From positions 744,001 to 808,000 of the forward strand of contig NZ_CP096184.1 of the NCBI RefSeq assembly GCF_020447105.2: DNA of 64,000 bases. Direction: 5' to 3'. The stretch is from Demequina sp. TMPB413. Its GTDB lineage: Bacteria; Actinomycetota; Actinomycetes; Actinomycetales; Demequinaceae. Shown here one piece after another: positions 15,252 through 30,588 of the stretch. The stretch's first letter is position 1. The number at the start of each line of letters is the position of its first letter. The notes under the pieces are model-generated. The model saw only the letters and a list, made by a program, of their open reading frames with translations, was not told the origin of the DNA and ran no database searches. A program made the translations under genes and the position numbers.

Positions 15252-15288
15252 GCCGTGACCTCGCGTGTGGCTAGGGGACAGTGGTCGA

Positions 15289-16168: not shown

Positions 16169-17121
16169 CACGCACGCCCAGGATGAAACGCCTTGCATAG
16201 CGAGCAGAAGTGCGCCGTCCCCGCAGGATGCCGCTCCACCACATCAACCGCACGACCCCGCACCGAAGACGCAGCAGCCGACGCCTGAGCCGAACACGAC
16301 TCACACACCTTCACCTCACCCTTCGGATCCACAGCCGCCGCATCATGATGCGACCGAAACGACCACTCCAACGTATGCCGCACCTCCACAGGCACCGACG
16401 CGCTCGCGGCCTCCGCCTCCTGCTCCTTGATCGCCCGCAGCAGGATGCCGATATACCCGGCGTCCTCATTCTCGGCAGCCGCAACCGGGTCACCAGTCCA
16501 CACCGCCAAGCACTCCCGACACATCGCCAGCCCGAACCGACCCGGGATATCGAGCCTCACCCTCAACGAGTCCAGCGTGTCGCACCGCGGACAACGCACA
16601 TGCGGCGCCATCGGCCGATCGTCCATCCCGGCCACAATCTTCGCGTGAGCCCACCACGACCGCACATCCCGCTCGAGCGCCCGCAACTCATCATCAGACA
16701 GCGTCGAAGCCAACGCACCCAACGACGTCAGATTGCTCTCCGGCAACACCGACGGCTCACCGCCCGTCAACTCCCGCACCTTCTCAGCAGCCGACACCCT
16801 GATGCGCTCGCGGGCGTCGATCGCATCGAGTACTGCCGCCGGCCGCGACTCGAACGATCCTGTCGTGCCACTCGACCACCCGACGCGGCTCACTGCCATA
16901 TCGATCTGCTCAAGCAGCGGAGGGAGCTCCGTGACGTGGTCACCCATCGGCACGTCGTACCACTTGCCACCATGGGCATCCCAAGACCACCACGGCTCCC
17001 GCACCTCGAAAGGATCGGTGAACTGGCGGAGACGACGCCGCACCAGGCGAGCCTTCTCCCGACGTTCGTCTGGCGTGAGAGCCTCACGCTTGGAATCCTC
17101 AATGCTGGCCACTGTGGTCAC
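16168..17121 (-). CDS. Phage zinc-finger protein, unknown function
   Basis: A 317-residue protein with several paired-cysteine motifs: HVRCPRCDTLDSLRVRL, AMCRECLAVWTGD, VKVCESCSAQASA and a final HFCSLCKAFHPG. These look like two or three zinc ribbons. The N-terminal third is helical with a Trp-rich patch (REPWWSWDAHGGKWYDV). Similar large zinc-ribbon proteins are common in actinophage early operons, but no function is established that I know of. The GTG start overlaps the upstream stop, with AAGGA before it. Confidence 0.65.
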   Translation of the reverse strand: MTTVASIEDSKREALTPDERREKARLVRRRLRQFTDPFEVREPWWSWDAHGGKWYDVPMGDHVTELPPLLEQIDMAVSRVGWSSGTTGSFESRPAAVLDAIDARERIRVSAAEKVRELTGGEPSVLPESNLTSLGALASTLSDDELRALERDVRSWWAHAKIVAGMDDRPMAPHVRCPRCDTLDSLRVRLDIPGRFGLAMCRECLAVWTGDPVAAAENEDAGYIGILLRAIKEQEAEAASASVPVEVRHTLEWSFRSHHDAAAVDPKGEVKVCESCSAQASAAASSVRGRAVDVVERHPAGTAHFCSLCKAFHPGRA

Positions 17122-18170: not shown

Positions 18171-18194
18171 GGGTGGGGTGTCCTCTCGGGGTGT

Positions 18195-18428
18195 CTAGTC
18201 GGAGCAACCGCTGCACTCAGCGGTCTCAGGGTTGATAGGTCGGCCGCAGGCTGTGCACCGGACTGGTGTCGGCGGGTGACATGTGAGGCACGGGCAGGGC
18301 ACTTCGTTGTCGTTCGCGTCGAACGACACGCCCGTGCAGTTGGAGTGCTTGCCGACACGGCACTCTGGGCACATGCGAACACGTGGCGGGTCGGCCGCGA
18401 GCGCCGACGGAGGCGGTGTCGTGGTCAT
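18195..18428 (-). CDS. Small zinc-ribbon protein
   Basis: A 77-residue protein (MTTTPPPSALAADPPRV) with CPECRVGKHSNC, PCPCLTCH and a C-terminal CTACGRPINPETAECSGC, enough for two or three zinc sites. The ATG at 18428 overlaps the previous stop (ATGA). It probably folds around zinc and mediates protein or nucleic-acid contacts; no enzymatic motif is visible. Confidence 0.65.
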   Translation of the reverse strand: MTTTPPPSALAADPPRVRMCPECRVGKHSNCTGVSFDANDNEVPCPCLTCHPPTPVRCTACGRPINPETAECSGCSD

Positions 18429-18727
18429 GTGGTCTTCTCTCCCTTGGGTCGGTGGTGGACGCCGTCGCGGATGGCGGCAATGAACTCGGCGGGTGTGCCG
18501 TCGAAGCAGACGACCGTTCCCGGTTCGCTGATGCCGTCGATCCACTGCTGGTCGCGAAGCGTGATGCCCTCAAGCCACTTGGCTACCGCCTCACGCTCTT
18601 GTGCTTCTGCGTGGAGGGCTTCGATGTTCGGGGGTGCGTCTACTCGGTCGAGGTGGACCTGAACCTCGACGGGGCCCTCTGGTCCCTGGATGTAGGTGTG
18701 GCCGGCGCCATCGATGGTTAACTCCAT
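18425..18727 (-). CDS. Phage protein of unknown function
   Basis: A 100-residue protein starting MELTIDGAGHTYIQGPEGPV at ATG 18727, which overlaps the preceding stop (TGATG) and follows GGGAGG. A beta-rich first half is followed by a helical, acidic second half. No family is recognised. It is coupled to the DUF550-like gene upstream and the zinc-ribbon gene downstream. Confidence 0.6.
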   Translation of the reverse strand: MELTIDGAGHTYIQGPEGPVEVQVHLDRVDAPPNIEALHAEAQEREAVAKWLEGITLRDQQWIDGISEPGTVVCFDGTPAEFIAAIRDGVHHRPKGEKTT

Positions 18728-19260
18728 CACGCACCCTCCCTTGTGCGGACGTGCTCGATCGCGCGGTCTTTGGGCTGTGTGCGCCAGTTGGGCCACTCTC
18801 GGGCCTCGTTGTGTTGTTGCTTCGCGAGTACCGCGTCGAGGACCTCCTGTGCGGGTACGCCCGTGCGCAGTGCACCATCGAGAGCGAGGATGATGACGTC
18901 GACCCACTCTTGGACGGCCTGCTCGAGCGTCTCCGCGTCCGCGATCTCGACGAGCTCCTTGCGGATGTGGTCGATGACACCGGCCTCACGCACACCGGGA
19001 CCGAACGTGGCCAGGCTGAACTCACGTTGCCTGGTGAGGTGTGCGGCGTCGATAGCGAACGGCTCGGCGGGCACGGACGATTGGCTCTTGGCGCGTGGGG
19101 CGCCCCAGTCCAGATTCTGGACGAAGGTCCCGCCGCAGGTGACTCCGCTCGGCTGGGGCATATGGTCAACCGAACCGATGCTGCTCTTGTCCCAGGTGCT
19201 CCGGCCACACTTGGTGCACTTGCCGACGGGCGGGTCGTCGGCCGCATTGCGCCAGCTCAT
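18727..19260 (-). CDS. MazG/DUF550-like nucleotide pyrophosphohydrolase with zinc-ribbon N-terminus
   Basis: A 177-residue protein. The C-terminal half reads FSLATFGPGVREAGVIDHIRKE followed by ADAETLEQAVQEWVDVIILALDGA, the DUF550 (dATP/dGTP diphosphohydrolase, MazG-like) pattern with the E..E..D metal ligands. Such phage enzymes sanitise or shape nucleotide pools. The N-terminus adds CTKCGRSTWDK and a further Cys, a likely zinc knuckle. The ATG at 19260 overlaps the previous stop. Confidence 0.72.
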   Translation of the reverse strand: MSWRNAADDPPVGKCTKCGRSTWDKSSIGSVDHMPQPSGVTCGGTFVQNLDWGAPRAKSQSSVPAEPFAIDAAHLTRQREFSLATFGPGVREAGVIDHIRKELVEIADAETLEQAVQEWVDVIILALDGALRTGVPAQEVLDAVLAKQQHNEAREWPNWRTQPKDRAIEHVRTREGA

Positions 19261-19841
19261 AGTGCCCACCTGACGGGGAAGCGGCAGCGCACGAGATGAG
19301 TTCGCGGCACGAACCTGAAGCGATTGCCGTTCACCCACTCCCACCGTTCGGCCCCCGCGACGATTCTCAGCGCCCACATGTCGCCGTTTCTGCGGTCGAC
19401 GTAGTGCCCGGGGATCATCAGTACCCGCATCAAGCCTGGACGTGGCTTGCGGTGCCCGTTGGGAACATTGGGCAGAGGTGTCACCGTGTTCGCCTCGCCA
19501 GGAGCCTTGTCGAGGTCGTAGGCATCGACGATGAGTGCGATCATCTGCGGAGTGATGCCCGGCACCCGCGCCCAGTGCATGATGCCCTCAGCGAGCTGTT
19601 TCGCCGTGTACGGGGTCGTCTGAGCGAACTCTGCCAACTCTCCGAACACCGCCGGCACATCGGCGGCGGCCGCGATCGCGGCGTCGGCTGCGGCGCGTGC
19701 TATGTGTGGCCACGCTTCTTTGTGGACCCGTTCGGTGTCCCAATGGAGGGAGGGCCAACGTAGGCGTTGCTCGATGGCTTCGAGGGCCGCGACTTGGGGC
19801 TTGGTGAGGACGTATCCGTCAGCGGTTCTGCGTTCGGTCAT
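19257..19841 (-). CDS. Phage protein of unknown function
   Basis: A 194-residue protein (MTERRTADGYVLTKPQVAAL) in the overlapping early chain (ATGA at both ends). A longer frame extends upstream through the neighbouring gene but its sequence there is a shadow of that gene. The middle is helical (HIARAAADAAIAAAADVPAV). The C-terminus is basic and aromatic (ERWEWVNGNRFRFVPRTHLV). No known domain recognised. Confidence 0.55.
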   Translation of the reverse strand: MTERRTADGYVLTKPQVAALEAIEQRLRWPSLHWDTERVHKEAWPHIARAAADAAIAAAADVPAVFGELAEFAQTTPYTAKQLAEGIMHWARVPGITPQMIALIVDAYDLDKAPGEANTVTPLPNVPNGHRKPRPGLMRVLMIPGHYVDRRNGDMWALRIVAGAERWEWVNGNRFRFVPRTHLVRCRFPVRWAL

Positions 19842-20278
19842 GCTGGCACCTCCTCGGGGTTGAGTGCCTGACACCGCTCGCAGTACGAGTAGGCGGGTAG
19901 GGTCTTGCCTGCGTAGGGGGATGTCGGAGGGGGCGTGTACGGCTCGACAGTGCGGATCGTGGTGTGGCCGAAGCGCTTGCAACGTTCCTCGTCCGCACAA
20001 CTGCCGCAAAGGACCGTGCCGTCCTCCAAGAGCACCCACTCGGAGGTGAGCACCATGGCGATCGCCTCTGCCACGCTGTCGAAGTGGAGCGAGATGTCTT
20101 CGCCCGTGTAGTCCTGATTGCAGGCAGAGCACGAGATCATCACGCACGGTCGGGCGAAGACCACGACTGAGGGCGGAGGCGGAGCATCGGCCGGCCAGGC
20201 GTCCAAAGTCGGCAACTCCTCATCGGGTGCCGTGTCTTCTGGCTCGGGGGTCACGTCGACGAACGTCGGGCCGCTCAT
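19838..20278 (-). CDS. Zinc-ribbon phage protein
   Basis: A 146-residue protein with three paired-cysteine units: ISCSACNQDYTG, LCGSCADEERCKRFG and YSYCERCQALNPEE. The N-terminal 40 residues are acidic and Pro-rich, likely disordered. It belongs to the run of zinc-binding proteins in this operon. The function is unknown. Confidence 0.6.
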   Translation of the reverse strand: MSGPTFVDVTPEPEDTAPDEELPTLDAWPADAPPPPSVVVFARPCVMISCSACNQDYTGEDISLHFDSVAEAIAMVLTSEWVLLEDGTVLCGSCADEERCKRFGHTTIRTVEPYTPPPTSPYAGKTLPAYSYCERCQALNPEEVPA

Positions 20279-20727
20279 GACGGCACGTCCCCGTCCGCCT
20301 CGTCGTCGACGTCGCCGTCTTGCTCGGTATCGTCGTCTTCGCCGTTGAAGACGCCCTTGCCGAACTTCAGCACCGTGGCGTGTACCTCGCCTGTGCTGTG
20401 TTGCACGGCACCCTCAGCGAATGCCTCCTTGACGTCGTCGCGGATGAACAACGGCAACGTGTTCGGGCTTGTGCGCTCCTCGAGCGCCCTGGTGAGTAGG
20501 CGTTCCGCGTCGCCGGCGTCGCGCGGGCGGACCAACTCAATACGGTCGATCGCCATGACCGGTTCCACCGAATGGGAGGCCCGGTTGTCGATCAGTTTCG
20601 CTGTGGACAGCACGACGATCGCGATACGCCGTTCGTCCGGGTGCCGGACGACGTCGGCGGCGTGGACCGCGAGACCGTTGCGCATGTAGTCGTCGTCGGC
20701 CTTCGGCAGTGTTGCTGCAAGTTTCAT
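20275..20727 (-). CDS. Phage protein of unknown function, acidic tail
   Basis: A 150-residue protein starting MKLAATLPKADDDYMRNGLA with a strong AAGGAG ribosome site. Alternating beta and helix segments (ERRIAIVVLSTAKLID, AIDRIELVRPRDAGDAERLL) are followed by an extremely acidic C-terminus (GEDDDTEQDGDVDDEADGD). The acidic tail could mimic DNA or bind a basic partner; this is speculation. No family recognised. Confidence 0.6.
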   Translation of the reverse strand: MKLAATLPKADDDYMRNGLAVHAADVVRHPDERRIAIVVLSTAKLIDNRASHSVEPVMAIDRIELVRPRDAGDAERLLTRALEERTSPNTLPLFIRDDVKEAFAEGAVQHSTGEVHATVLKFGKGVFNGEDDDTEQDGDVDDEADGDVPS

Positions 20728-20766
20728 GATGTGTTTCTCCTTGAGGGTGGTTGCAGGGCGTTGGAG

Positions 20767-20979
20767 TCAGCGGCGCTGACGGTTGACGGCACGCGACCGG
20801 CGGGCCACACGGTTCTTCGCACGACGCTTCGCCACCTGGTTGTGGTTCGCCGTGCCGGCGTACACCTGCCCGGGCTTGCGGTTGCTGAGCGCGTTCAGCG
20901 CGTCTTGACGCACTCGCTGCCGCGGGCTTGTCAGCCGACGCAACGTCGCGAGGGCCTTGTCAGATAGGAACTGCATCAT
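20767..20979 (-). CDS. Small very basic phage protein
   Basis: A 70-residue protein starting MMQFLSDKALATLRRLTS. The C-terminal half is strongly basic (QVAKRRAKNRVARRSRAVNR) and likely binds nucleic acid. AGGAG stands 6 bases before ATG 20979, deciding this start over longer readings. Confidence 0.6.
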   Translation of the reverse strand: MMQFLSDKALATLRRLTSPRQRVRQDALNALSNRKPGQVYAGTANHNQVAKRRAKNRVARRSRAVNRQRR

Positions 20980-20986
20980 GTGTCTC

Positions 20987-21259
20987 CTAGTCCCACTCGT
21001 CGACGATCGCGACGGTGTTGTCGGGGTTGAGGTTGAAAGTCCGCGTACCCACACGGGCACCCGGTAGCGGCAACTCGCCGCGACGCAACTCGGTCACGCC
21101 GCGACGGTCCTGCACGATCGCGCACCGACGAATCAGCGCCGGCTCACCCACCGCATGACACACGTTGATGCGGTTCCGCAGTTGCCGCTTCGCGTCGATA
21201 CGCCACGTCGGAAAGTCAGGGGTGCACGACCGCACCGCGACCTCTTGTGCCGGGTTCAT
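20987..21259 (-). CDS. Phage protein of unknown function
   Basis: A 90-residue protein from ATG 21259 (MNPAQEVAVRSCTPDFPTWR), which overlaps the preceding stop as ATGA. It has RRCAIVQDRRGVTELRRGEL and ends with FNLNPDNTVAIVDEWD. The upstream extension of this frame is a shadow of the neighbouring gene. No domain recognised. Confidence 0.55.
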   Translation of the reverse strand: MNPAQEVAVRSCTPDFPTWRIDAKRQLRNRINVCHAVGEPALIRRCAIVQDRRGVTELRRGELPLPGARVGTRTFNLNPDNTVAIVDEWD

Positions 21260-21510
21260 CTGGCAGGGCTTCTTTCGACACGCCACGCCTTGAGTGGGGC
21301 TGTGACTCCGCACGCGTGCTTGAGGACTTCGACCTGGCCGGGTGACTTGGTCAGGGGCCCGCCGACGGTGTGGAGGGCGACAGCGGCGCACCGGGCGCAC
21401 TTGTCGACCGAGCACCCACACGGGACGAGGGTCAGGGTCACTGACACGCCTTTTGACCCGCATCCGGCGCACCGGCGTGCCGCGAGCGCTTTCATCTGCT
21501 CGGCGGTCAT
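21256..21510 (-). CDS. Cys-rich small phage protein
   Basis: An 84-residue protein with CAGCGSKG, PCGCSVDKCARC and a later lone Cys, consistent with one or two zinc sites. It overlaps the helicase gene by an ATGA. It may be an accessory factor of the helicase, but this is inferred from coupling only. Confidence 0.6.
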   Translation of the reverse strand: MTAEQMKALAARRCAGCGSKGVSVTLTLVPCGCSVDKCARCAAVALHTVGGPLTKSPGQVEVLKHACGVTAPLKAWRVERSPAR

Positions 21511-23201
21511 GCGGCCCTCCGGTGGTTGGCGAGGACCGTGCGGGCGAGGCTGCGGGCCCGGTCGGTGTCGACCGTCGCGTTCGTCAGGAGCTTCCCGTCG
21601 GGGCTGATGATGGGCTCCGCCTGGTTGCGCTTGATCTGCAAGGTCTCCATGATTGGCGGGTCAGATCCCTCATCGGAGGTCAGGAAGTACGCGACGACGG
21701 GGTTGTTCTCGTCCATGCCATCGCGACGGAAGCGGCCGATGCCTTGCTCGTGGATCTGGGGTGACCAGTCAAGTTCGCCGAACACGGCCACCGAGCACAC
21801 CTTCTGCAGTCCGTCGACGCCAGCACCGGACCGCAGGCTCATCATCAGCACCCGAGCATCCCCATGGATGAACGCGTCCTCGGCTGCGGCTTTCTGTGCC
21901 GGCGACTCACTGCCCGTGTACATCACCGGGCGGAACGCGTCGAGCTCTCGACGCCAGATGCCCCACACCGCGCGGTGCCACCCAAACAGTGCGACCTTTT
22001 CCTCAGACTCGAGAAGCATCTTCACGAACTCAGCGACGTAAGGCGCCTTCGCGATACCGGTCGCCTGCCGCACCTTCCAGTCCAACTCACCCGCCGCCTG
22101 AAACCGCTCCTGGCGAGTGGTTCCCTGCGCCAGAATCACCTCAGCGAGACGGGCAGCATCACCAGTGATTGCGGTCAATGCGGCAGGGTCTGACTCCACC
22201 GTGTGCGGCACCTTCACCACCTGCGGCAACTCGCGACCCACCTCCTTGCGGGTGCGCGCCAACAGCAAACCCTCACGACGCAAGTACTCGCCCAGTGCTG
22301 CCGGCTCACGCACCAACACGTGCCCGCCATAGGTTTGCGTGCCCCACTCGCGGATGAACTCCTCACGAGTGCCCAACACGTCCGGCGCGATGATGTCGTA
22401 CAGGTTGTGGATCTCGCCGCCGTAGTTGTACACCGGCGTTGCCGTCAAACCCACCACGAACGAAGCCTCACTAGCCACATGCGCCGCCGCACGACCCTTG
22501 TCCGACACCGTGCCGCGACGTAGATCCTGCACCTCGTCAAACAACACCGTCCGCACCCGACCTGCCAGCGCGTGCGCCCATCCGGCTAACTTGGAGTACG
22601 GGACCACGACCACGTCGGGAAGGTGGCCGTCGATGATGTGCTGCGGAGGCTTGGTCTTCTTTGCCACCTCAACGGTGAGCATCGGTAGCGATTCGTTCAG
22701 TTCGGTCACCCACCGTCGGGGCAGATGGGTGAGCGGCACCACTAGAGCGGGGCGGGCGTCGTCGTCGATGACGGTGAGTAGCCCTGTGAGGGTCTTGCCC
22801 AGCCCCAGCTCATCGCCGATGATCATCCGGCGACGCTCACGCACCAGCTGGTATGCCTGCACCTGGTAGTCGCGGGGCGTCTTCATCAGGTCCGGCGGGA
22901 ACGACGTCTGGTGCGACGGCGTGGTCAGGATCCGCGCAATCGCCGCTTCCGTCTCACGATGTTGGGTTGCCGCCATGGCAAGGAAGTCGGCCGACGCGCC
23001 ATCGAACGGCTCGAGCGGGAACCGTTGCATGAACCACTCAATATCGCGGGCCACCTCGGGGGTGTGCTTCACGACAATTTCGCCTGACCGGGTCGACTGC
23101 ACTCGAGCGAACATGCGGCGTGCACGTATCGCCGTCGCCGGATCTAACGCAAGACGCCAAATCTGGGCGAACGGATCGTGTTGGTAGGTGCCGTGGTTCA
23201 C
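21507..23201 (-). CDS. SNF2-family DNA helicase/translocase
   Basis: A 564-residue superfamily 2 ATPase. Motif I is GDELGLGKT (129-137). Motif II is DEVQ (222-225) instead of the usual DEAH/DEAQ. Motif III is GLTATP near 255, motif V is SLRSGAGVDGL and motif VI is QIHEQGIGRFRRDG. The N-terminal 100 residues are a separate helical region. SNF2-type proteins translocate along duplex DNA and in phages usually stand in the replication region next to a VRR-type nuclease, as here. The GTG start overlaps the nuclease stop. Confidence 0.88.
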   Translation of the reverse strand: MNHGTYQHDPFAQIWRLALDPATAIRARRMFARVQSTRSGEIVVKHTPEVARDIEWFMQRFPLEPFDGASADFLAMAATQHRETEAAIARILTTPSHQTSFPPDLMKTPRDYQVQAYQLVRERRRMIIGDELGLGKTLTGLLTVIDDDARPALVVPLTHLPRRWVTELNESLPMLTVEVAKKTKPPQHIIDGHLPDVVVVPYSKLAGWAHALAGRVRTVLFDEVQDLRRGTVSDKGRAAAHVASEASFVVGLTATPVYNYGGEIHNLYDIIAPDVLGTREEFIREWGTQTYGGHVLVREPAALGEYLRREGLLLARTRKEVGRELPQVVKVPHTVESDPAALTAITGDAARLAEVILAQGTTRQERFQAAGELDWKVRQATGIAKAPYVAEFVKMLLESEEKVALFGWHRAVWGIWRRELDAFRPVMYTGSESPAQKAAAEDAFIHGDARVLMMSLRSGAGVDGLQKVCSVAVFGELDWSPQIHEQGIGRFRRDGMDENNPVVAYFLTSDEGSDPPIMETLQIKRNQAEPIISPDGKLLTNATVDTDRARSLARTVLANHRRAA

Positions 23202-23605
23202 AGGGCACCACCGGACAAGATCAACACGTCAGGAGCGGCGCCCACACCACCGACAAACGTCATCGCCGGCACCCCAATATGTGCTGGCACGGTCGACACC
23301 AACAGCAACTCATCCACGGCGGGGTGGGCCGCATACGCAGCCAACTGACGGGCCACCGTAGGTGCCGCACCTTTGACCTTCACCTCGACACCCACGCCAC
23401 CGACCATGAAGTCGATCCGCATTCGGTCATTCAGCCTGTCCTCCCGGTGCACGAGGTCACCAAACCGGGATGTCAATGCGACAGCGAGTCGCTCCTGCAG
23501 TTGCCGCTCCCCGGTGAACTGGTACGGCTCACCCGCCTCGATGACCTCCCGCACCACGAGCGCCGTGGGCGTGTCGTCTGCCACGGTGAGATTCGTCTCA
23601 GCCAC
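23198..23605 (-). CDS. PD-(D/E)XK (VRR-like) nuclease-fold protein
   Basis: A 135-residue protein. The core reads ERQLQERLAVALTSRFGDLV, then RMRIDFMVGGVGVEVKVK, giving the D...ExK active-site pattern of the PD-(D/E)XK fold, and then a helix with AARQLAAYAAHPAVDELLLV-like sequence. It resembles the small VRR_NUC/restriction-like proteins paired with phage SNF2 helicases. The start at GTG 23605 overlaps the previous gene by 8 bases. The nuclease activity is inferred from the motif. Confidence 0.65.
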   Translation of the reverse strand: MAETNLTVADDTPTALVVREVIEAGEPYQFTGERQLQERLAVALTSRFGDLVHREDRLNDRMRIDFMVGGVGVEVKVKGAAPTVARQLAAYAAHPAVDELLLVSTVPAHIGVPAMTFVGGVGAAPDVLILSGGAL

Positions 23606-23765
23606 GACCCACCACCGCCTCGAGGAGACGTCGCAGCGGGCGCGACACCTCGGCCCAGATCGCACCGAAGGCCGCGTTGACACTGTTGGCCGCGAACCGA
23701 TACGACCCCTTTGCAGCGTGTGCCGCCACGAAGAAGTCCGACAGGTCGCGAGCGTGGCGTGTCAT
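23598..23765 (-). CDS. Small phage protein, 55 residues
   Basis: Starts at ATG 23765 (MTRHARDLSDFFVAAHAAKG), overlapping the ASCH gene stop as ATGA, and ends 8 bases inside the nuclease gene. Predicted mostly helical and basic, ending SRPLRRLLEAVVGRG. It belongs to the lower part of a much longer open frame whose upstream portion is a shadow. No family recognised. Confidence 0.55.
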   Translation of the reverse strand: MTRHARDLSDFFVAAHAAKGSYRFAANSVNAAFGAIWAEVSRPLRRLLEAVVGRG

Positions 23766-24226
23766 GAGGCGACCTCCGCCCACACTCGGGCCTCGACGTC
23801 GTCGGGCAGGGTCCGCAGACCGAGCGCACCCGTGTACCGGATCGGGGTCGCGAGCGCGCGTGGGTTTTCGAGCACTAGGTGATAAGTCCCGTAGGTGTCG
23901 CCCCATGGCGAGCATGGGAACTTGCCTGCGCGCGGCGTGCACTCGTTGTCGGACGGGTGCGAGTAGTGCACGTCGACGAGGTCGACCACGCCGATGATCG
24001 CGCCGAGGTTGGGCGGGAGGGTGATGAGTGGCATCCAACCGGTGATCGTGACGATTCGGTCGCTGGCGCCACCTGGCTCGAAGCGGTTTGGTACTTCGCG
24101 CTTCGCGGCGTGGATCGCGACGGGGCCGCGGTAGTCGCCGGCGATGTTGCGGGACCTGTTCTCGACGTCTTTGCCACCATGGATGATGGCCCACGCCCAC
24201 GGTTGGCGCACTGTCAGGATCTTCAT
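23762..24226 (-). CDS. ASCH-domain protein
   Basis: A 154-residue protein starting MKILTVRQPWAWAIIHGGKD, the hallmark opening of ASCH-like proteins, followed by DVENRSRNIAGDYRGPVAIH and LGAIIGVVDLVDVHY. ASCH folds are PUA-like and bind RNA or modified nucleobases; some members are amidohydrolases of N4-acetylcytidine. In phages they may read modified nucleotides. The ATG at 24226 overlaps the preceding stop. Confidence 0.85.
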   Translation of the reverse strand: MKILTVRQPWAWAIIHGGKDVENRSRNIAGDYRGPVAIHAAKREVPNRFEPGGASDRIVTITGWMPLITLPPNLGAIIGVVDLVDVHYSHPSDNECTPRAGKFPCSPWGDTYGTYHLVLENPRALATPIRYTGALGLRTLPDDVEARVWAEVAS

Positions 24227-24999
24227 ACCGTCGCCCCTGTCACGTGCGCCTGTAGGGCCGCGAGCTCGATGGCGGGACCGGCGAGACCGGCGCGTGAGGG
24301 ATGTGGGTCCCACACCAGGTCGCCCGTCACCCAGTCCACGAGGACGGCGTGCATGAAGTCACCTCGAGGCGACTTACCGGTCGCGATCACTACCGGCGGA
24401 AGCGCCTCTGTCTGCGTGGCGACCGGGAACACCGGGTCAATGCACACGAGCGTCGTGCCGGGGGCGTTCTCTTCCACCCACGTGACGGTCGCGTACCACC
24501 ACGCGGGTGTCGTCTCGTCGGGGTAGAGCTGCGCAAAGTGGGGCACCACTTCCAACGGGGCATTCGTGAGACCCGCAATGCACGCGCGCCAACAGTCACC
24601 GGGCACGTCCGACTCGCCGTGTAGAAACTCTTGCGTCGGATACCGGTCAGGTTCGGGAGCGTTCGCAATCTCAAGCAACACGTCCGCGTGGCAGGGGTCG
24701 CCGGGCTTGCACCAGCACGCGAGATCCTTGCCCGCGAGCGCGGTCCGTATCTCTGCGGAGGTGGGGACGGTTTCGTGGACGTCGGTTGCCTTGACCGTGA
24801 TCACGTAACTGGGCGTCACGATCTTCGCTGCGCGGCGCACCACCAGGTCGCGGTAGCCGTAGACGATCTGCTCACGGGTCAAACTCTTGATGCCGCCCGG
24901 CAGAGGGTTGCCCCACCTGCTCGGCCTGGCAACGATCACCGCGTCGGGGTGTTCGGCCCGCCATGGGTGCTGGCGTGACATCTGGACGCGCTTAGGCAT
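24223..24999 (-). CDS. DUF4326 domain fused to papain-like cysteine peptidase-like domain
   Basis: A 258-residue two-domain protein. Residues about 15-112 fit DUF4326: ARPSRWGNPLPGG and DLACWCKPGDPCHADVLLE. Residues about 125-258 resemble small phage-borne papain-like domains: VPGDCWRACIAGLTNAPLE with Cys136, a later FMHAVLVDW with His217, and VWDPHPSRAGL with Asp231, a plausible Cys-His-Asp triad. DUF4326 is often linked with nucleotide or ADP-ribose-type metabolism, but its activity is not settled. The start overlaps the previous gene by 8 bases. Confidence 0.65.
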   Translation of the reverse strand: MPKRVQMSRQHPWRAEHPDAVIVARPSRWGNPLPGGIKSLTREQIVYGYRDLVVRRAAKIVTPSYVITVKATDVHETVPTSAEIRTALAGKDLACWCKPGDPCHADVLLEIANAPEPDRYPTQEFLHGESDVPGDCWRACIAGLTNAPLEVVPHFAQLYPDETTPAWWYATVTWVEENAPGTTLVCIDPVFPVATQTEALPPVVIATGKSPRGDFMHAVLVDWVTGDLVWDPHPSRAGLAGPAIELAALQAHVTGATV

Positions 25000-25261
25000 C
25001 AGGCGCCTCTTCCCAGTCTTTGCCGGGCTTGCGGCGCACGATGACGTAGGTCTCCCAGTAGCACTTCACTGCGGTGTGCCGGGCGCTCTCTTCGGTCAAG
25101 AACGGCAGGCACCCGAATGCATAGGCGATGACTGTGGGCGAGTCGTCGGCGATGAAGCCGTACTGGTAGCCGTCCGGGCCGAAGTCCTTCGGGTCGTCGG
25201 TCAGGCCCGGGTCGGCTGGCCACGTTTTGCCTTGCCTCTCTGCTGCGTCGGCCACGGTCAC
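24992..25261 (-). CDS. Phage protein of unknown function
   Basis: An 89-residue protein from GTG 25261 (GTGA overlap). It includes DGYQYGFIADDSPTVIAYAF and AVKCYWETYVIVRRKPGK, suggesting a small mixed alpha/beta fold. No family recognised. Confidence 0.55.
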   Translation of the reverse strand: MTVADAAERQGKTWPADPGLTDDPKDFGPDGYQYGFIADDSPTVIAYAFGCLPFLTEESARHTAVKCYWETYVIVRRKPGKDWEEAPDA

Positions 25262-25572
25262 ACACCGGCCATGGTGGCCACCGTGATGGCGTTGGCGGCG
25301 CGTTGGCGCACCGCGGGGGCGATTTCGTAGTAGCCCTCGGAGCGGAACGCGGCACGGATCATGGGGAGGGTCGCGAAGGCGAACCCGACTCGTGACGTGT
25401 TGGTCTCAAAGTCATAGTCGACGTCGACGTCGCACATGATCTCGCACGTCTCGTTGGGTCCGTAGATCCCGCCGAGCATCTGGCGGCGGTCGCCGTCATA
25501 GTTCGCGAACCGAGCGGGCTTCGGCAGCCCTGACACTTCGTAGCTCTGGGCGTCGTCGGTGTTCTCTTCCAT
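25258..25572 (-). CDS. Phage protein of unknown function
   Basis: A 104-residue acidic protein (MEENTDDAQSYEVSGLPKPA), with TCEIMCDVDVDYDFETNTSR and a helical C-terminus. The start overlaps the RusA-like stop (TGATG). No family recognised. Confidence 0.55.
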   Translation of the reverse strand: MEENTDDAQSYEVSGLPKPARFANYDGDRRQMLGGIYGPNETCEIMCDVDVDYDFETNTSRVGFAFATLPMIRAAFRSEGYYEIAPAVRQRAANAITVATMAGV

Positions 25573-26048
25573 CAGCTGCTCTCCTTTGGGTATGCCTCAA
25601 CTTCGATCACGGTGTACGGGTGTGCGGGGTCGGCAGCCCACCGCTTCGCGGAACACAGGTCGACCACCTGGGCGTCGTCGACGATCGCGCCCGCGTCAGT
25701 GAGGGCGTCGAGGACGTTGCGGTCGATCTTGTCCATGTCGCCAGTCCTCTTCGCCGTCGGCATCGGGTCCCGGTTCGACTTCGGTTGCGGCAGAAACGAC
25801 ATGACGGTCACCCGCACCGGACCCGACACCGGGCCAGCGCTGCGCAAGCCCTGGCGCACACGCCACGCGACCTCGGCACGCCACTCCTTCGAGTGCGCGG
25901 TGGACTCCACCAGGCGGGCGTGACCCACCCCGTAACTCACACCGTTCACGATGCGGCGAGCCTGCTTGGTCTGCATGCTCCCCTTGGTGCGCGCCCGACC
26001 TTCAACCACCACGCGCACCACCGGCACCATCGCCGTCCCCGCGATCAC
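25572..26048 (-). CDS. RusA-family Holliday junction resolvase
   Basis: A 158-residue protein from GTG 26048, which overlaps the previous stop. The RusA signature is clear in the C-terminal half: MPTAKRTGDMDKIDRNVLDA followed by LTDAGAIVDDAQVVDLCSAK, containing the conserved Asp residues (D-x-D-K, D-A-L, DD) that bind Mg. RusA enzymes cut four-way junctions formed during phage DNA recombination and replication, clearing DNA for packaging. Length is normal for the family. Confidence 0.88.
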   Translation of the reverse strand: MIAGTAMVPVVRVVVEGRARTKGSMQTKQARRIVNGVSYGVGHARLVESTAHSKEWRAEVAWRVRQGLRSAGPVSGPVRVTVMSFLPQPKSNRDPMPTAKRTGDMDKIDRNVLDALTDAGAIVDDAQVVDLCSAKRWAADPAHPYTVIEVEAYPKESS

Positions 26049-26347
26049 GACGCACCGACCCTCGTCATCAGGACCGCTTCCCACGTCGACTTTCGTGACG
26101 CACCACCAGGCGCGCCCGGGTCAAGCCGGTAGATGGAGACCACCAACTTCGGCGCAACGCTCAAGATGTGCCTGTTAGCGGCGCGGCGATATGTGCTGGC
26201 GTCGACGGCAGTGCCCTCGAATTGCACCGCTCCAGTGCGGTTGTCCATCAGCAGACCAACCAGCGCGACTCCAACAGACCGAACCGCTTTCTTGGGCCGC
26301 GACGAGGCCTTCTCGACGGCGCGCAGACGCGCATACGGGTCTCTCAC
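26045..26347 (-). CDS. Phage protein of unknown function
   Basis: A 100-residue basic protein. GTG 26347 (VRDPYARLRAVEKASSRPKK) overlaps the stop of the small zinc-ribbon gene; a longer reading would run through that gene. It contains VALVGLLMDNRTGAVQFEGT. It is coupled to the resolvase downstream. No family recognised. Confidence 0.5.
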   Translation of the reverse strand: MRDPYARLRAVEKASSRPKKAVRSVGVALVGLLMDNRTGAVQFEGTAVDASTYRRAANRHILSVAPKLVVSIYRLDPGAPGGASRKSTWEAVLMTRVGAS

Positions 26348-26487
26348 GCCGCCACCCCCTCGCCTTGAAGCAGGCCAACGCGGGCTGAGATCGAGCCGAG
26401 CAACTTCACGGCGATCGCGGCACACTTGGGACACATCGGGTCATCCAGAGTCGCGCTCATCTGCGCACCACAGTCGATGCACTTCAC
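26344..26487 (-). CDS. Tiny zinc-ribbon protein, 47 residues
   Basis: A very short gene from GTG 26487 to TGA 26344 with GTGA overlaps at both ends. The protein begins VKCIDCGAQMSATLDDPMCP and has a second CPKC pair, giving a classic CxxC...CxxC zinc ribbon, followed by a helix. The overlap phasing and the cysteine spacing support it as a real gene. Confidence 0.6.
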   Translation of the reverse strand: MKCIDCGAQMSATLDDPMCPKCAAIAVKLLGSISARVGLLQGEGVAA

Positions 26488-27407
26488 GCCGCCACCGCCT
26501 CTAGCAGCACTGCGATATCACTGCGACCGTGGCGAGCGATAGCGGTGTTGATCGAGTCGAGCTTCACCCCGAGGCGTGAAGCAGCACGTTCAGGGGTCTC
26601 GCCTGAACGGAGAAGAAACGCGAACTCGTCAAGGTCGACACCCCGGGCTGGGCCTTCACACGGGGACGGCGAGTCAGTGAGGTAGCCGTCGTCGTCAAGG
26701 TCGATCGGTGATGGCCAACCAAGATCGATGGCACGTCGTCGGGTGCGGGTCGCAGCGATCTTCGCGCGCCACTCCACCGGGGTGCAGGGCGTCCGCCACA
26801 GCCTCGTGAAGACGTCACGGACGGCGATGTGAGTTTGCACCGACGCGGTAGGTGTGCCCTTCATGATCTTGTCGAGGCGTTGCCTATCCACACGCGCGAC
26901 ACGGCTGATCTCGCCGACGCTGTATCCCATTCGACCCAGCGCCTGGATGCGGTTCCGAGTAGGCGTCCCGTCGATCAACTGATGCGCCGCGAGCTCCTCG
27001 GGCGATGGGATCGCGACAGCGAGGAGCTTCGCTTCAGTCTCACGCGAGATCTTCGTCCGCACCCCACGGCCGCGCGAAGGGGTCGGGTAGAGCAGAGCGC
27101 CAATCGCCGAGCAACCCGTGCCTGCACGCTTCGCGATCTGCTTGTAACCCAACCCCGCGGCTTGCAACGCGAGAACGTGGGCCCGAGCGCGCGACGCGTC
27201 AACATAGGGCTCATATCGGTCGTCGGTCGCGTACCTCCGGTAACTCTTGCGACGGCTCTCCTCGCGGCGATACGCGACCGCAACGGGCCGGCAGTCGTCG
27301 CATCGGCAACCGTCGAGCACGTAGCACGCATAGGTGCCGTGCCGATGGGTGGTGCGCGGATGTGTGCATGCTTCGTTAGGTGCAGTGGGGTGGTCGAAGG
27401 CCGTCAT
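26484..27407 (-). CDS. Helix-turn-helix DNA-binding protein, phage type
   Basis: A 307-residue protein from ATG 27407 (ATGA overlap). The N-terminus has a Cys/His motif found in many actinophage proteins (GTYACYVLDGCRCDDCRPVA). A helix-turn-helix follows (HVLALQAAGLGYKQIAKRAG), and a second one near the middle (RMGYSVGEISRVARVDRQRL), with a third helical unit near the end (ETPERAASRLGVKLDSINTA). It probably binds DNA as a regulator of phage genes, perhaps controlling the switch to late genes. The target is unknown. Confidence 0.7.
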   Translation of the reverse strand: MTAFDHPTAPNEACTHPRTTHRHGTYACYVLDGCRCDDCRPVAVAYRREESRRKSYRRYATDDRYEPYVDASRARAHVLALQAAGLGYKQIAKRAGTGCSAIGALLYPTPSRGRGVRTKISRETEAKLLAVAIPSPEELAAHQLIDGTPTRNRIQALGRMGYSVGEISRVARVDRQRLDKIMKGTPTASVQTHIAVRDVFTRLWRTPCTPVEWRAKIAATRTRRRAIDLGWPSPIDLDDDGYLTDSPSPCEGPARGVDLDEFAFLLRSGETPERAASRLGVKLDSINTAIARHGRSDIAVLLEAVAA

Positions 27408-28012
27408 GCGAACACCACCCACCAGGCGGCGACACCCACCGTGAACACCGACGCGCCGACGACGGAGAGCACGGGACCCGACAGCACCATCCGCCGCTTG
27501 GGATCGGCGGGGGCGTCAGGTGCTAGTTCTGCGTCGGGAGCGTCGTCGACGTCCACGGTGGGGTCAACCTCCACGACATCGCGGGGAGGCACGATGCCCT
27601 GGTCTTGCGGGGCGGCACGAGACAGCATCACAGCCGACGCCAAAGCCGCAGGGTGGCCACCCAACGCCAACAGCCTCCCCGCGTACCGTGGGGCCGTCCT
27701 AGGGCGAATGGTGCGCGACCACAACGCCGTGACCTTGATCAGCGCTCCCTCGGTTGAGTCGGCCCGCGCTTCGGCACTGCCTGCCCTCAACCTCATGGCA
27801 TCGAACTCACGCGACACGTTGATGTACCGCTCCTGCGCCTTGGCCGCGTCGCTCTTGGCTCGCTCTAGCGCGACGTCCAACGCCGACGACCGCAACCACA
27901 GCGCGACGATCATGACAATCGCGGCGACCATCCCAATACCGACGTTCGACGTCACCAGGCACGCCACACCCAACATGCAGGCGATGCCGTAGAGGAAGCG
28001 TGACCAGACCAT
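27404..28012 (-). CDS. Membrane protein with central coiled coil
   Basis: A 202-residue protein from ATG 28012 (MVWSRFLYGIACMLGVACLV), overlapping the preceding stop (TGATG). Two N-terminal membrane helices (about 5-45) are followed by a charged coiled coil (DVALERAKSDAAKAQERYIN), a Pro/Asp-rich linker and a final membrane helix (VLSVVGASVFTVGVAAWWVV). It may be a superinfection-exclusion or membrane-scaffold factor, a guess based only on topology. Confidence 0.6.
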   Translation of the reverse strand: MVWSRFLYGIACMLGVACLVTSNVGIGMVAAIVMIVALWLRSSALDVALERAKSDAAKAQERYINVSREFDAMRLRAGSAEARADSTEGALIKVTALWSRTIRPRTAPRYAGRLLALGGHPAALASAVMLSRAAPQDQGIVPPRDVVEVDPTVDVDDAPDAELAPDAPADPKRRMVLSGPVLSVVGASVFTVGVAAWWVVFA

Positions 28013-28215
28013 CACGACGCACCACACGGACGTGGACGGGACATCACCGCGGCCGCGATCGCGGCGCAATACAGCGCGATCGACAACAGCCACATGCCCC
28101 ACAGGCCGCCGACGAAGAACACGACGAATGACGCCACGGCGGCAACGAGAGCGGCCAACGCGATCGCCCGCCAACGGCGCGCACGGTACGGCTCAGAGTG
28201 GTTCACGTACACCAT
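28012..28215 (-). CDS. Small membrane protein with two helices
   Basis: A 67-residue protein with a basic N-terminus (MVYVNHSEPYRARRWRA) and two membrane helices (IALAALVAAVASFVVFFVGG and a second, WLLSIALYCAAIAAAV). It is coupled to the next membrane gene, so they may form one complex. No family recognised. Confidence 0.6.
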   Translation of the reverse strand: MVYVNHSEPYRARRWRAIALAALVAAVASFVVFFVGGLWGMWLLSIALYCAAIAAAVMSRPRPCGAS

Positions 28216-28257
28216 GAGGAACTTCTTTCGGTCAGCAGGGAGCAGGGACGACGGGAG

Positions 28258-28647
28258 TCAGATGCCGCGCGGTGGCGGTAGCCACGTCTCGCGGTCAGGC
28301 ACCGGCACTGCGGTGCGGCGGTAGACCTTCACGTGGGCGCCGTTCGCGGACTTGCCGCGAGACGGGATGGAACGGTGCACGTCACCAACACCCGGGATGT
28401 GGTCCATCACCGGCTCGAGAAGGTGAAGAGCGCAGACCTTGCGAAACAGGCCCGCGCGTGACTTCGTCGGCACGCCCCGGCGGTCGAGTTCGTCGCGCAC
28501 GTCATTCGACGTGAACTCGCTGCCCGTGGCCAGCGGCCGCACCGCATCGAAGATCACGTCGATGTCTTCACGCATCGAGTCCCAGAGGGAGGCCTGCTGG
28601 CCCGATTCCTTCGCCGCCGTGTACTCCGCGACCGTCGCGCCGCTCAT
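28258..28647 (-). CDS. Phage protein with winged-helix-like domain
   Basis: A 129-residue protein (MSGATVAEYTAAKESGQQAS). The centre (GSEFTSNDVRDELDRRGVPT, then RAGLFRKVCALHLLEPV) resembles a winged-helix domain as found in phage proteins that read host or phage DNA. The C-terminus is basic and extended. ATGA overlap with the upstream gene. DNA binding is an inference. Confidence 0.55.
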   Translation of the reverse strand: MSGATVAEYTAAKESGQQASLWDSMREDIDVIFDAVRPLATGSEFTSNDVRDELDRRGVPTKSRAGLFRKVCALHLLEPVMDHIPGVGDVHRSIPSRGKSANGAHVKVYRRTAVPVPDRETWLPPPRGI

Positions 28648-29198
28648 GAGGTGGCCTCCGGCAGATCGGGCACCGGCTCAAGGTGGCGCTCGCCTGGCGT
28701 CACGGGCTCGACGGGCCCCACGGAGTAGACGTCGCAGCCAAGGAAAGTGAACACGTCATCAATACGCCCCACAGCTCGACCACACATCGTGGCCCACTCG
28801 GCAGCGCCGTCCACACCCGACGCCATCTCGGCGGCATCCGCTAGGAGCTCACGAGCCCGACGCACACGCTCCGTCACCTGCGCCGCAAGCGCCGGAGAGG
28901 CAGCCATAGGCGACGCCTCCCGTACCCTCACCGCGAGCGCGGGGATTGCTTCGACGGTGCGGGCGAAAGAGTTCGGCATTACCACGACGCCGTCGTGGTC
29001 GGGGGCTTGAAAGAAGTGGTGTGAGGCCTGAATCCGGTCAATTTGGTCTGTGAGCCATGTCTGCGCGGCGTTGCGGTAGATGAAGGAGTCATGCACTGAT
29101 TGCTCGCCGGCCATCACGCCGACGTGCCACATGGCGGTCGTGGGGTGTACGGGGCAATCGGCGTCGCACAGCGTGGGCTCAAGGATCCGGAGTTCCAT
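28644..29198 (-). CDS. Phage protein of unknown function
   Basis: A 184-residue protein from ATG 29198 (MELRILEPTLCDADCPVHPT); a GTG one codon earlier is an alternative. It has an early CDADCPVH motif and helical middle (RVREASPMAASPALAAQVTE). A similar helical part with RRARELLADAAEM also occurs in the next gene upstream (VRRARELIASVMP), so the two may be distant paralogues. Confidence 0.55.
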   Translation of the reverse strand: MELRILEPTLCDADCPVHPTTAMWHVGVMAGEQSVHDSFIYRNAAQTWLTDQIDRIQASHHFFQAPDHDGVVVMPNSFARTVEAIPALAVRVREASPMAASPALAAQVTERVRRARELLADAAEMASGVDGAAEWATMCGRAVGRIDDVFTFLGCDVYSVGPVEPVTPGERHLEPVPDLPEATS

Positions 29199-29728
29199 CA
29201 CGCCACCCCCAGGTTGTGCAGACGCTCGATCGCGTCATCCAGCAGAAGCTGTGCGCTGCGGGCGTCCAGTCCTGCGCCCTTCACACGGTGACGCGGGTCG
29301 TTGACGTCATTGGGCATCACCGACGCGATCAGTTCGCGAGCGCGGCGCACCAGGGCGTGAGCGGTCTCGAGGTCTCGTTTCGCGTCGACGAGCGGGTGTG
29401 CGTCGGCCGCGAGCGCGTCGACGACGTATTCGCTTCCGTCGGTGCGGGTTGTGTCGGTGGGACGTGATACGACGTCGTGTCCGGCGAAGGGGACTCCTCC
29501 GCATCCGGTGATGCGTTGTCCTTGTGCGGTGAGTTGGTTCGCGAGACGGGAGGGGATGTCAGTGACGTCGATGCGTCGCGCTGGTTGCCATGTGTTGGGC
29601 GAACCCGGGAGCCACGGCGCGTGGGGGACTGGTTCCGTGGTCGCGTGCTCTGGGACCGCGGCCATCTCGCGTCGGGCACACGATTGGCCAGCGAGGAACT
29701 CCACCAAGGTGGACGGCTCGGCGGTCAT
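29198..29728 (-). CDS. Phage protein of unknown function
   Basis: A 176-residue protein from ATG 29728 (MTAEPSTLVEFLAGQSCARR), which overlaps the stop of the small membrane gene as ATGA. It is acidic with a long helical C-terminus (DLETAHALVRRARELIASVM and SAQLLLDDAIERLHNLG). The longer frame upstream is a shadow. No family recognised. Confidence 0.55.
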   Translation of the reverse strand: MTAEPSTLVEFLAGQSCARREMAAVPEHATTEPVPHAPWLPGSPNTWQPARRIDVTDIPSRLANQLTAQGQRITGCGGVPFAGHDVVSRPTDTTRTDGSEYVVDALAADAHPLVDAKRDLETAHALVRRARELIASVMPNDVNDPRHRVKGAGLDARSAQLLLDDAIERLHNLGVA

Positions 29729-29859
29729 GAGTTCGTCTCGCTGATGAACACGACCGCGGCGGCAGTGAGGCCACCGGCGGCGAGACCGAGGACGGCGGCA
29801 ATGCCGAGTGCCACCCACCCGAACGTCGCGCCGATACGGCGACCCGTGCTGTGCCTCAC
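29725..29859 (-). CDS. Tiny membrane protein, 44 residues
   Basis: A short gene from GTG 29859 to TGA 29725, with GTGA and ATGA overlaps to both neighbours. After a basic start (VRHSTGRRIGATFGW) one long membrane helix follows (VALGIAAVLGLAAGGLTAAA). The overlap phasing supports it. The role is unknown; small membrane proteins early in phage operons sometimes affect superinfection. Confidence 0.6.
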   Translation of the reverse strand: MRHSTGRRIGATFGWVALGIAAVLGLAAGGLTAAAVVFISETNS

Positions 29860-30125
29860 GACGCCACGTCCTCGAGTTGTGCGCGCCGAGCCTCAAGACG
29901 GGCCGCTTCCTCCGCGATGCGTTTGCGGGCGGCGGCGATCACGACGTCGCGGCGGAAGAGATAGGAGCCCAGGGTGCCGGGGAGTTTCTGCTCGAAGTCG
30001 AGCCGCCCTCCCTCGGCCATCTTGCGAACAGCGCCCGGTGTCACCGAGAGAATCTCCGCAGCGTCTCCCGTCGTGATCAGCGTTGCACGAGAGTCGGTTT
30101 GCGTACCTGTGTGCGTTTCGGCCAT
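29856..30125 (-). CDS. Excisionase/Cro-like helix-turn-helix protein, first early gene
   Basis: An 89-residue protein starting MAETHTGTQTDSRATLITTG at ATG 30125. It holds a MerR/excisionase-like winged helix: TTGDAAEILSVTPGAVRKMA, then GSYLFRRDVVIAAARKRIAE. It is divergent from the repressor and is the first gene of the leftward early operon, the place of Cro or Xis in temperate phages. A candidate promoter puts the transcript start at or next to the ATG, so the mRNA is probably leaderless; no ribosome site is seen. Confidence 0.72.
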   Translation of the reverse strand: MAETHTGTQTDSRATLITTGDAAEILSVTPGAVRKMAEGGRLDFEQKLPGTLGSYLFRRDVVIAAARKRIAEEAARLEARRAQLEDVAS

Positions 30126-30251
30126 GAGACACATATAAGCACCACCAGAGCGCATGCGCAACCCTCGACGTGTTTACGGCGTGTCGTTGCTATCGCTCCC
30201 CTTGCGCACTTGCGCACCAGTCGCTATTCTGTGCTGAGAGAGGAGAACGAC
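30126..30251. promoter_or_regulatory. Divergent lysogeny control region with TGCGCA operators
   Basis: The intergenic space between the two regulators holds two facing promoters. Rightward: TTGCGC (30202-30207), 17-base spacer, TATTCT (30225-30230), reading to the repressor, which has a GAGAGGAG ribosome site. Leftward: TTGCGC (complement of 30156-30161), 17-base spacer, TTATAT (complement of 30133-30138), only 7 bases before ATG 30125. TGCGCA occurs at 30155-30160, 30203-30208 and 30211-30216, each touching a -35 box. This is a strong candidate operator set for repressor and Cro-like protein. Confidence 0.7.
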
Positions 30252-30554
30252 ATGTATCCCGTAATTCACGTAGGACACCGGATGCGCATCGCGCGCGAAG
30301 AAGCCGGGTATGAGGTGCGCGCGTTCGCCGATGCGCTCGGGATTGCACCGAGCACCGTGACGCGCTACGAGAAAGGCCGCGCGCGGCCGAAGAGGCTGGC
30401 GCTGAAGGCGTGGGCAGAACTCACCGACGTGCCTGTGCACTGGTTGGAGTTCGGTCTGATGGAGGCGGCTCCCTTGCCGCCCACCGCCGCAGTGGCAGTG
30501 AGCGGCAAGAGCCAGCTCCCCCGGTTGGACTCGAACCAACAACCTGCCGATTAA
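30252..30554 (+). CDS. Prophage immunity repressor, XRE family, ending inside the tRNA attachment site
   Basis: A 100-residue XRE helix-turn-helix protein (MYPVIHVGHRMRIAREEAGY). The HTH spans about 10-65 with VRAFADALGIAPSTVTRYEK as its recognition part. It is the only plus-strand phage gene and divergent from the early operon, the position of the lysogeny repressor. Codons 89-100 and the TAA stop are antisense tRNA-Asn sequence; the stop falls in the anticodon loop. So the integrated form seems truncated or re-ended by integration, as in mycobacteriophage integration-dependent immunity. The viral C-terminus cannot be seen here. Confidence 0.8.
   Translation: MYPVIHVGHRMRIAREEAGYEVRAFADALGIAPSTVTRYEKGRARPKRLALKAWAELTDVPVHWLEFGLMEAAPLPPTAAVAVSGKSQLPRLDSNQQPAD
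30516..30554. other. Predicted attachment-site core in the tRNA-Asn 3' half
   Basis: The tRNA 3' half facing the prophage is the usual crossover target for tyrosine integrases. The repressor frame runs from phage DNA into this stretch and ends in it, which marks the junction. The exact core length cannot be set without the other end, where a direct copy of this sequence should occur left of the window. Confidence 0.6.
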
Positions 30555-30588
30555 CAGTCGGCTGCTCTGCCAATTGAGCTACGGAGGA
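30516..30588 (-). tRNA. tRNA-Asn (GTT)
   Basis: Full cloverleaf on the minus strand: acceptor TCCTCCG pairs with CGGGGGA, D arm AGCTCAATTGGCAGAGC, anticodon loop CTGTTAA with GTT (30553-30555), T arm GGTTCGAGTC. No CCA is encoded. It is the prophage integration target; the gene remains complete. Confidence 0.95.

What the first reader, a model, noticed from the sequence alone, without database searches (positions are those of the whole stretch)
30252..30588. Repressor gene ends inside the tRNA-Asn attachment site: candidate integration-dependent immunity switch
Seen: the XRE repressor (100 codons) takes its last 12 codons and its TAA stop from antisense tRNA-Asn; the stop lies in the anticodon loop. 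No integrase is present on this side of the prophage. Known: in mycobacteriophages such as BPs, Brujita and Giles, attP lies in the repressor gene; integration removes a C-terminal degradation tag, so only the prophage form is stable, and integrase ends up at the far end of the prophage. The BPs prophage form has about the same length (103 residues). Inference: this actinobacterial prophage uses the same logic with a tRNA-Asn site.
Basis: partly seen in the sequence, partly recalled or inferred. Interest (0 to 1): 0.85.

Follow-up and report, generated by a model that had tools for sequence, protein, structure and literature searches.

The report
Integration-armed phage repressor at tRNA-Asn
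A virus dormant in a Demequina chromosome has its integration site inside its own off-switch gene, so inserting into the host's asparagine tRNA gene cuts off a predicted self-destruct tag and makes the switch stable; the trick is known from mycobacterial phages, and this is a new case in another bacterial genus and at another tRNA.

Summary
The repressor (window 30252-30554, 100 codons) takes its last 12 codons and TAA stop from antisense tRNA-Asn. The other prophage end lies 5.8 kb left of the window: a displaced tRNA-Asn 3' half, then a plus-strand tyrosine integrase. Rejoining the ends extends the repressor in frame to 130 residues ending -DHKAA*, its TGA overlapping the next ATG. The reconstructed empty tRNA is identical to that of 13 congeners. 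Demequina gelatinilytica carries a sister prophage whose rejoined form ends -GDKAA*. Metagenomic viral contigs hold uncut forms directly. Both Demequina integrases end in -AA. Repressor and integrase are homologues of those of BPs- and Wizard-group phages, which use integration-dependent immunity. So this is a new member of a known kind, in Demequina and at tRNA-Asn, neither of which I found reported. New twist: in the repressor frame the host tRNA reads TAA at the edge of the crossover. Both Demequina phages carry a compensated T-stem pair (A49-U65 to G49-C65) that removes this stop and keeps the tRNA paired. Degradation of the long form and stability of the short form are inferred, not shown.

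The parts
1..30549 (.). Right-hand part of a 36.3-kb prophage. Its left end is outside the window at G000:C1:738200-738208 (window coordinate about -5800); the integrase and repressor-tail remnant lie there.
   Evidence: terminase large subunit, portal, tape measure and helicase matches
29856..30125 (-). Divergent HTH_17 / excisionase- or MerR-like gene (89 aa from ATG 30125), in the place of the Cro-like gene of BPs
30126..30251 (.). 126-bp repressor/early intergenic region with three TTGCGCA repeats (one inverted): candidate operator (inferred)
   Evidence: 7 copies of TTGCGCA in the whole 36-kb prophage, 3 of them here
30252..30554 (+). Immunity repressor, prophage form, 100 aa, HTH_3/HTH_31; in the rejoined phage form it continues to 130 aa ending -DLDHKAA
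30515..30588 (-). tRNA-Asn(GTT), attB; its 3' part (30515 to about 30549) is phage-derived with T-stem GTTGG/CCAAC instead of host ACTGG/CCAGT
30541..30549 (.). AACCTGCCG, the stretch within which the crossover must lie (phage sequence to its left, host to its right)
30540..30542 (+). CAA codon of the phage; the host tRNA reads TAA (stop) here in the repressor frame
30552..30554 (+). Host-supplied TAA stop of the prophage form, antisense of tRNA positions 35-37

Best explanation
An integration-dependent immunity switch of the BPs type in a Demequina prophage. SHOWN BY SEQUENCE: in the circular phage the repressor ORF runs through attP (the 3' half of tRNA-Asn, read antisense) into a tail ending -DLDHKAA*. 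The tail's TGA overlaps the ATG of a 77-aa ORF, followed by a tyrosine integrase ending -QRPHAA. Recombination between attP and the host tRNA-Asn replaces the tail by Asp plus a host TAA stop, moves the integrase to the far end of the prophage, away from the repressor promoter, and rebuilds an intact tRNA-Asn. INFERRED: the -AA tail is an ssrA-like degron, so the 130-aa viral form and the integrase are turned over by ClpXP or a similar protease during lytic growth. Only the 100-aa prophage form accumulates, represses the divergent early promoter and gives superinfection immunity. Since the host tRNA-Asn itself reads TAA in this frame at the edge of the crossover, the phage carries an altered but still paired T-stem, and integration edits two base pairs of the host tRNA.
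For: Displaced tRNA half, integrase and repressor-tail remnant at the far end. In-frame 130-aa joint ORF with ATGATG stop/start overlap. Reconstructed attB identical to 13 congeners. Sister prophage in D. gelatinilytica with conserved tail ...VSSLDDK..RR...KAA and integrase ending RAA. Viral contigs with the uncut form, 8 of 14 repressors and 10 of 14 integrases ending -AA against 16 of 222 background ORFs. Repressor homologous to immunity repressors of Wizard-group Gordonia phages across the junction and of cluster-G-type mycobacteriophages over the HTH. Integrase closest to GMA5, Wizard-group and cluster-G-type integrases. Host tmRNA tag ends ALAA. Published mechanism.
Against: No direct evidence of excision of this prophage, of degradation, or of repression. 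The divergent gene looks more like an excisionase/MerR HTH than a Cro. Codon-position differences in the tail between the two Demequina phages are too few to show selection by themselves. Some uncut relatives end in -VA, -FA, -AS, -NS or -AL rather than -AA.
Confidence: 0.88

Rival explanations
1. attP overlaps the repressor 3' end for economy only. Both forms are stable and active, the tail has no regulatory role, and immunity does not depend on integration.
For: No stability data for this protein. Some tRNA-Asn relatives have tails without terminal AA, and the second prophage of this genome ends -ESA.
Against: The tail is conserved between two phages with 60% identical repressors, including the final KAA. 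Terminal AA is enriched in relatives. A phage that kept the host T-stem would have the same repressor end in both states, yet these phages have changed that base pair.
Confidence: 0.08
2. The tail does something other than mark the protein for proteolysis, for example it weakens DNA binding or oligomerisation, or couples translation to the downstream ORF and integrase; integration still switches the repressor on.
For: The tail is about 30 residues long, more than a degron needs, and its stop overlaps the next start codon.
Against: In BPs both forms bind DNA similarly and differ by degradation (PMC4557955). The -AA ending is shared with the integrase and the host tmRNA tag.
Confidence: 0.1
3. 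Chance overlap or decayed prophage: the open joint frame is an accident of GC-rich DNA.
For: About 31 codons without a stop is not rare in GC-rich DNA.
Against: Sister prophage and many viral contigs with the same arrangement. Structural genes present. Stop/start overlap, terminal KAA, and a frame kept open through the tRNA by a paired change.
Confidence: 0.01

Closest known systems
Mycobacteriophage BPs integration-dependent immunity (gp33 136 aa viral / 103 aa prophage; cluster G)
   Different: tRNA-Asn instead of tRNA-Arg; an extra 77-aa ORF between repressor and integrase; divergent gene excisionase/MerR-like; host stop lies in the anticodon loop; phage T-stem removes an in-frame host stop
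Gordonia phages Wizard, Twister6, Jambalaya (Wizardvirus) and GMA5
   Same: Repressor aligns across the att junction (residues 2-124, E 1e-12); closest integrases; GMA5 also has an extra ORF between integrase and repressor (PMC5559632)
   Different: attB in tRNA-Arg (Wizard, Twister6) or tRNA-Lys (GMA5), other host genus; only 36-40% protein identity
Integration-dependent prophages of Bifidobacterium (Bb423phi2, 689b-1) and Mycobacterium abscessus (MabB, MabN and others)
   Same: Prophages in which rejoining the ends in silico extends the repressor with an ssrA-like tail (PMC6109161, PMC8092301, PMC9934374)
   Different: Other hosts and other attachment sites

Membership tests
Integration-dependent immunity (BPs type) | attP lies inside the 3' part of the repressor ORF | tested here: met
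Integration-dependent immunity (BPs type) | Viral repressor longer than prophage form, with an ssrA-like C-terminus (-AA) | tested here: met
   130 vs 100 aa, -DHKAA; sister -GDKAA; relatives
Integration-dependent immunity (BPs type) | Stop codon of the prophage form made by host DNA at the junction | tested here: met
   TAA 30552-30554 lies to the host side of the crossover
Integration-dependent immunity (BPs type) | Tyrosine integrase downstream of the repressor in the same direction, separated from it by integration | tested here: met
   one 77-aa ORF lies between, as an extra ORF does in GMA5
Integration-dependent immunity (BPs type) | attB overlaps a host tRNA that is rebuilt without mispairing | tested here: met
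Integration-dependent immunity (BPs type) | Integrase also carries an ssrA-like C-terminus | tested here: met
   QRPHAA here, ELPRAA in the sister; sequence only
Integration-dependent immunity (BPs type) | Repressor homologous to those of known integration-dependent phages (lineage, not required for the mechanism) | tested here: met
   phrog_2328
Integration-dependent immunity (BPs type) | Divergent Cro-like gene | tested here: inconclusive
   A divergent HTH gene is present but matches HTH_17/excisionase/MerR-like families
Integration-dependent immunity (BPs type) | No directionality factor; integrase without arm-type DNA-binding domain | tested here: inconclusive
   Pfam finds only the catalytic domain; the divergent gene could be an excisionase
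Integration-dependent immunity (BPs type) | Viral form degraded, prophage form stable and immunising | not testable with these tools
   Needs protein half-life and immunity assays

The most novel reading that the evidence does not exclude
tRNA-Asn is a recurrent site for this switch in actinobacterial phages because its U35-U36-A37 read antisense always gives TAA in the anticodon loop. Most host tRNA-Asn genes of the sampled type also carry a second in-frame TAA at T-stem position 49, just at the crossover. The phages must therefore carry a compensated T-stem (pair 49-65 changed, pairing kept), and integration rewrites the host tRNA to suit the repressor's reading frame: one stretch of DNA under selection at once as recombination site, tRNA and antisense protein.
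Probability: 0.45. Interest if true: 0.62.

Novelty: new member of a known kind. Interest (0 to 1): 0.5.

Why it matters
It extends immunity-by-integration to Demequina, where this one genome carries two such prophages, and to a tRNA not in the published Gordonia attB list. About 14 uncut and 20 integrated tRNA-Asn cases in viral contigs, with several different repressor heads fused to the same att-coded peptide LPxLDSNQxPA, make the evolution of this switch testable. The T-stem change is a clean, checkable example of a phage altering a host tRNA in a way that keeps its own gene open.

Tried and rejected
ARAGORN's 'tRNA-Ser' at the left end is a false call built on the displaced tRNA-Asn half. 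A nine-sequence repressor alignment was too diverse for a genome-contig scan; a two-sequence one found only D. gelatinilytica as a close relative. Annotated phage records with tRNA-Asn-like att DNA were mostly phages' own tRNA genes, plus M. abscessus prophage ends; in the two M. abscessus records opened, no annotated repressor overlaps the site. So no isolated tRNA-Asn phage of this kind was found. A first T-stem count was circular because sites were chosen for an open frame; it was redone choosing only on the upstream ORF. Codon-position differences in the tail (7, 8, 10) are too few and even to argue selection alone. BPs itself (EU568876) is not held, so cluster-G-type relatives served. Broussard 2013 is not held; its content is taken from later papers.

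Full report
OBSERVATION. The repressor ORF starts at ATG 30252 and stops at TAA 30552-30554 (100 aa). tRNA-Asn(GTT) runs on the minus strand from 30588 to 30515. Codons 89-100 and the stop are therefore antisense tRNA-Asn, and the stop is the complement of U35-U36-A37 in the anticodon loop.

THE OTHER END. The window is G000:C1:744001-808000 of a single-contig 2.92-Mb genome. Searching it for the tRNA 3' end found one partial copy, at 738176. It sits just after a dnaG-like ORF (L002 9209-11092) and reads CTCCCCCGACTGGACTCGAACCAGTAACCTGCCG|GTTACAGG. To its right lie a 77-aa ORF and a tyrosine integrase, both on the plus strand (PF00589). The prophage is thus about 36.3 kb, with terminase, portal, tape-measure and helicase genes inside the window.

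REJOINING. The two ends share AACCTGCCG (window 30541-30549, genome 738200-738208), with T-arm differences to the left and anticodon-loop differences to the right. Joining them gives attP, in which the repressor continues ...LPRLDSNQQPAGYRSVSSLDDKRRIASERQRVTRPDLDHKAA* (130 aa). Its TGA overlaps the ATG of the 77-aa ORF (GCATGATG). The integrase ends QRPHAA. Joining the other halves gives attB, a perfect tRNA-Asn that is 100% identical to the intact tRNA-Asn of 13 congeners. So the left copy's T-arm is the host's, the right copy's is the phage's, and the crossover is confined to 9 bp (tRNA positions 40-48).

A SISTER PROPHAGE. It has a prophage at the same tRNA with a repressor 60% identical. 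Its rejoined form ends DYRAHTVPGTVSSLDDKKRRVRERLSAPRLDLGDKAA* and its integrase ends ELPRAA. In the tail, 18 of 31 aligned residues are identical, including the final KAA. The tail lies past the crossover, so the lysogen's repressor does not contain it; its conservation points to a role in the viral form.

UNCUT FORMS IN NATURE. Viral contigs contain repressors reading straight through the tRNA-Asn att core. The closest, L007/L008 (55% identical over residues 1-111), ends ...YRSGGISSLADKRERVTAVARIRTLATHQTKDAA*. Of 14 distinct uncut loci 8 end in -AA, against 16 of 222 background ORFs of 150 aa or more, and 10 of 14 of their integrases end in -AA. The background set is mechanical and some loci are related (L087, L098, L136), so the binomial value (1.5e-6) is only indicative. 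About 20 further contigs show the integrated form, stopping ...PAG* or ...PAD* in the tRNA. Several quite different HTH heads share the att-coded peptide LPxLDSNQxPA.

RELATION TO KNOWN SYSTEMS. The reconstructed 130-aa protein matches immunity repressors of free Gordonia phages of the Wizard group over residues 2-124 (E 1e-12), and over the HTH those of cluster-G-type mycobacteriophages such as Terror and Avrafan. The integrase is closest to GMA5 (40%), then Wizard-group and cluster-G-type integrases. Such phages are reported to use integration-dependent immunity. [quoted passage not shown] A review lists the features: attP in the repressor, tags on both proteins, tRNA attB, host-made stop, no mispairing in the rebuilt tRNA (PMC9262239). 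Gordonia examples in the published table use tRNA-Ala, Arg, Ser, Thr, Lys or Gly, not Asn (PMC5559632). Bifidobacterium and M. abscessus prophages with the same logic are also published (PMC6109161, PMC8092301, PMC9934374). I found no report for Demequina or for tRNA-Asn, but the library holds only open-licence papers, and Broussard 2013 itself could not be read.

A TWIST IN THE ATTACHMENT SITE. In the repressor frame the host tRNA reads GAC TCG AAC CAG TAA CCT GCC GAT TAA. The first TAA falls on what is window 30540-30542, at the left edge of the crossover and four codons before the anticodon-loop stop. In the 13 congeners with the identical tRNA, the frame before the anticodon-loop stop is just PAD for that reason. 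A phage carrying the host sequence would have the same repressor end in virus and prophage, and so no switch. Both Demequina phages have changed the responsible T-stem pair from A49-U65 to G49-C65, reading CAA CAA or CAG CAA. The D. gelatinilytica phage differs from the host T-stem in that pair only; this phage also changes pair 50-64. In a sample of the class, 72 of 98 exact-pattern tRNA-Asn sites carry the stop-making T (counted by hand). Among viral-contig sites chosen only for the upstream frame, 30 of 40 non-T sites but 2 of 31 T sites have an ORF of 80 or more codons entering (Fisher 2.7e-9); sites are not all independent, and many T sites are tandem tRNAs. In one search pairs 49-65 and 50-64 are kept in 38 of 38 sites. 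That set was chosen for open frames, and three of its members (L038, L042, L162) do not look like repressors, so only the pairing, not the absence of T, is evidence there. I read this as one sequence selected at once as att site, tRNA and antisense protein. The paired mismatches of BPs (PMC9262239) are a precedent for compensated differences; I did not find stop avoidance discussed.

MECHANISM AND LIMITS. Shown: anatomy of attB, attP and both prophage ends; homology to known systems; conservation of the tail. Inferred: ClpXP-type degradation of the 130-aa form and of the integrase, stability of and repression by the 100-aa form, and operator function of the three TTGCGCA repeats in 30126-30251. 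The host tmRNA tag ADSKRTDFALAA shows that a terminal AA signal is in use in this host. Two points fit less neatly: the divergent gene (29856-30125) looks more like an excisionase/MerR HTH than a Cro, and an extra ORF separates repressor and integrase, as in GMA5.

SECOND CASE IN THE SAME GENOME. G000:C1:2223005-2256541 is another prophage-like element whose repressor homologue ends in tRNA-Arg(ACG). Rejoined, the ORF reads ...PPTFWLVADGAPADVVEEAPERPDADVIPIRSRAASLSLPEAESA*, again with an ATGA overlap to a small ORF and then a tyrosine integrase. Its tail ends -ESA, not -AA. Two more Demequina genomes have homologous repressors ending in tRNA-Arg (L052, L053).

VERDICT. Observation confirmed, interpretation supported: a new member of a known kind, in a host genus and at a tRNA for which I found no report, with a testable dual-coding feature.

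Noticed in passing
G000:C1:2223005-2256541 (L165, L166, L078): A second element of the same design in this genome: repressor homologue ending in tRNA-Arg(ACG), 37-bp shared core, rejoined ORF ending -PEAESA with ATGA overlap, small ORF, then tyrosine integrase.
   Followed up: partly
L052 1501-1840 (G032) and L053 1388-1728 (G001): Repressor homologues in two other Demequina genomes end inside tRNA-Arg(ACG), in two different reading frames of the same tRNA (...RRDSNPQPSDP* and ...RPEGFEPPTF*).
   Followed up: partly
L087, L098, L136 (viral contigs): Related uncut repressors whose tails end -RPRAS or -RASQNS instead of -AA, while their integrases end -SVAA; the tag may be lost or different there.
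   Followed up: no
L002 11301-11534 (left of the window) and L049 reverse strand, about 2644-3027: The ORF between repressor tail and integrase appears different in the two Demequina phages; the 77-aa one here has no significant Pfam or PHROG match. Function unknown.
   Followed up: no
L002 11175-11262: ARAGORN calls a tRNA-Ser(CGA) that is really the displaced tRNA-Asn 3' half folded with phage DNA; an annotation pitfall.
   Followed up: yes
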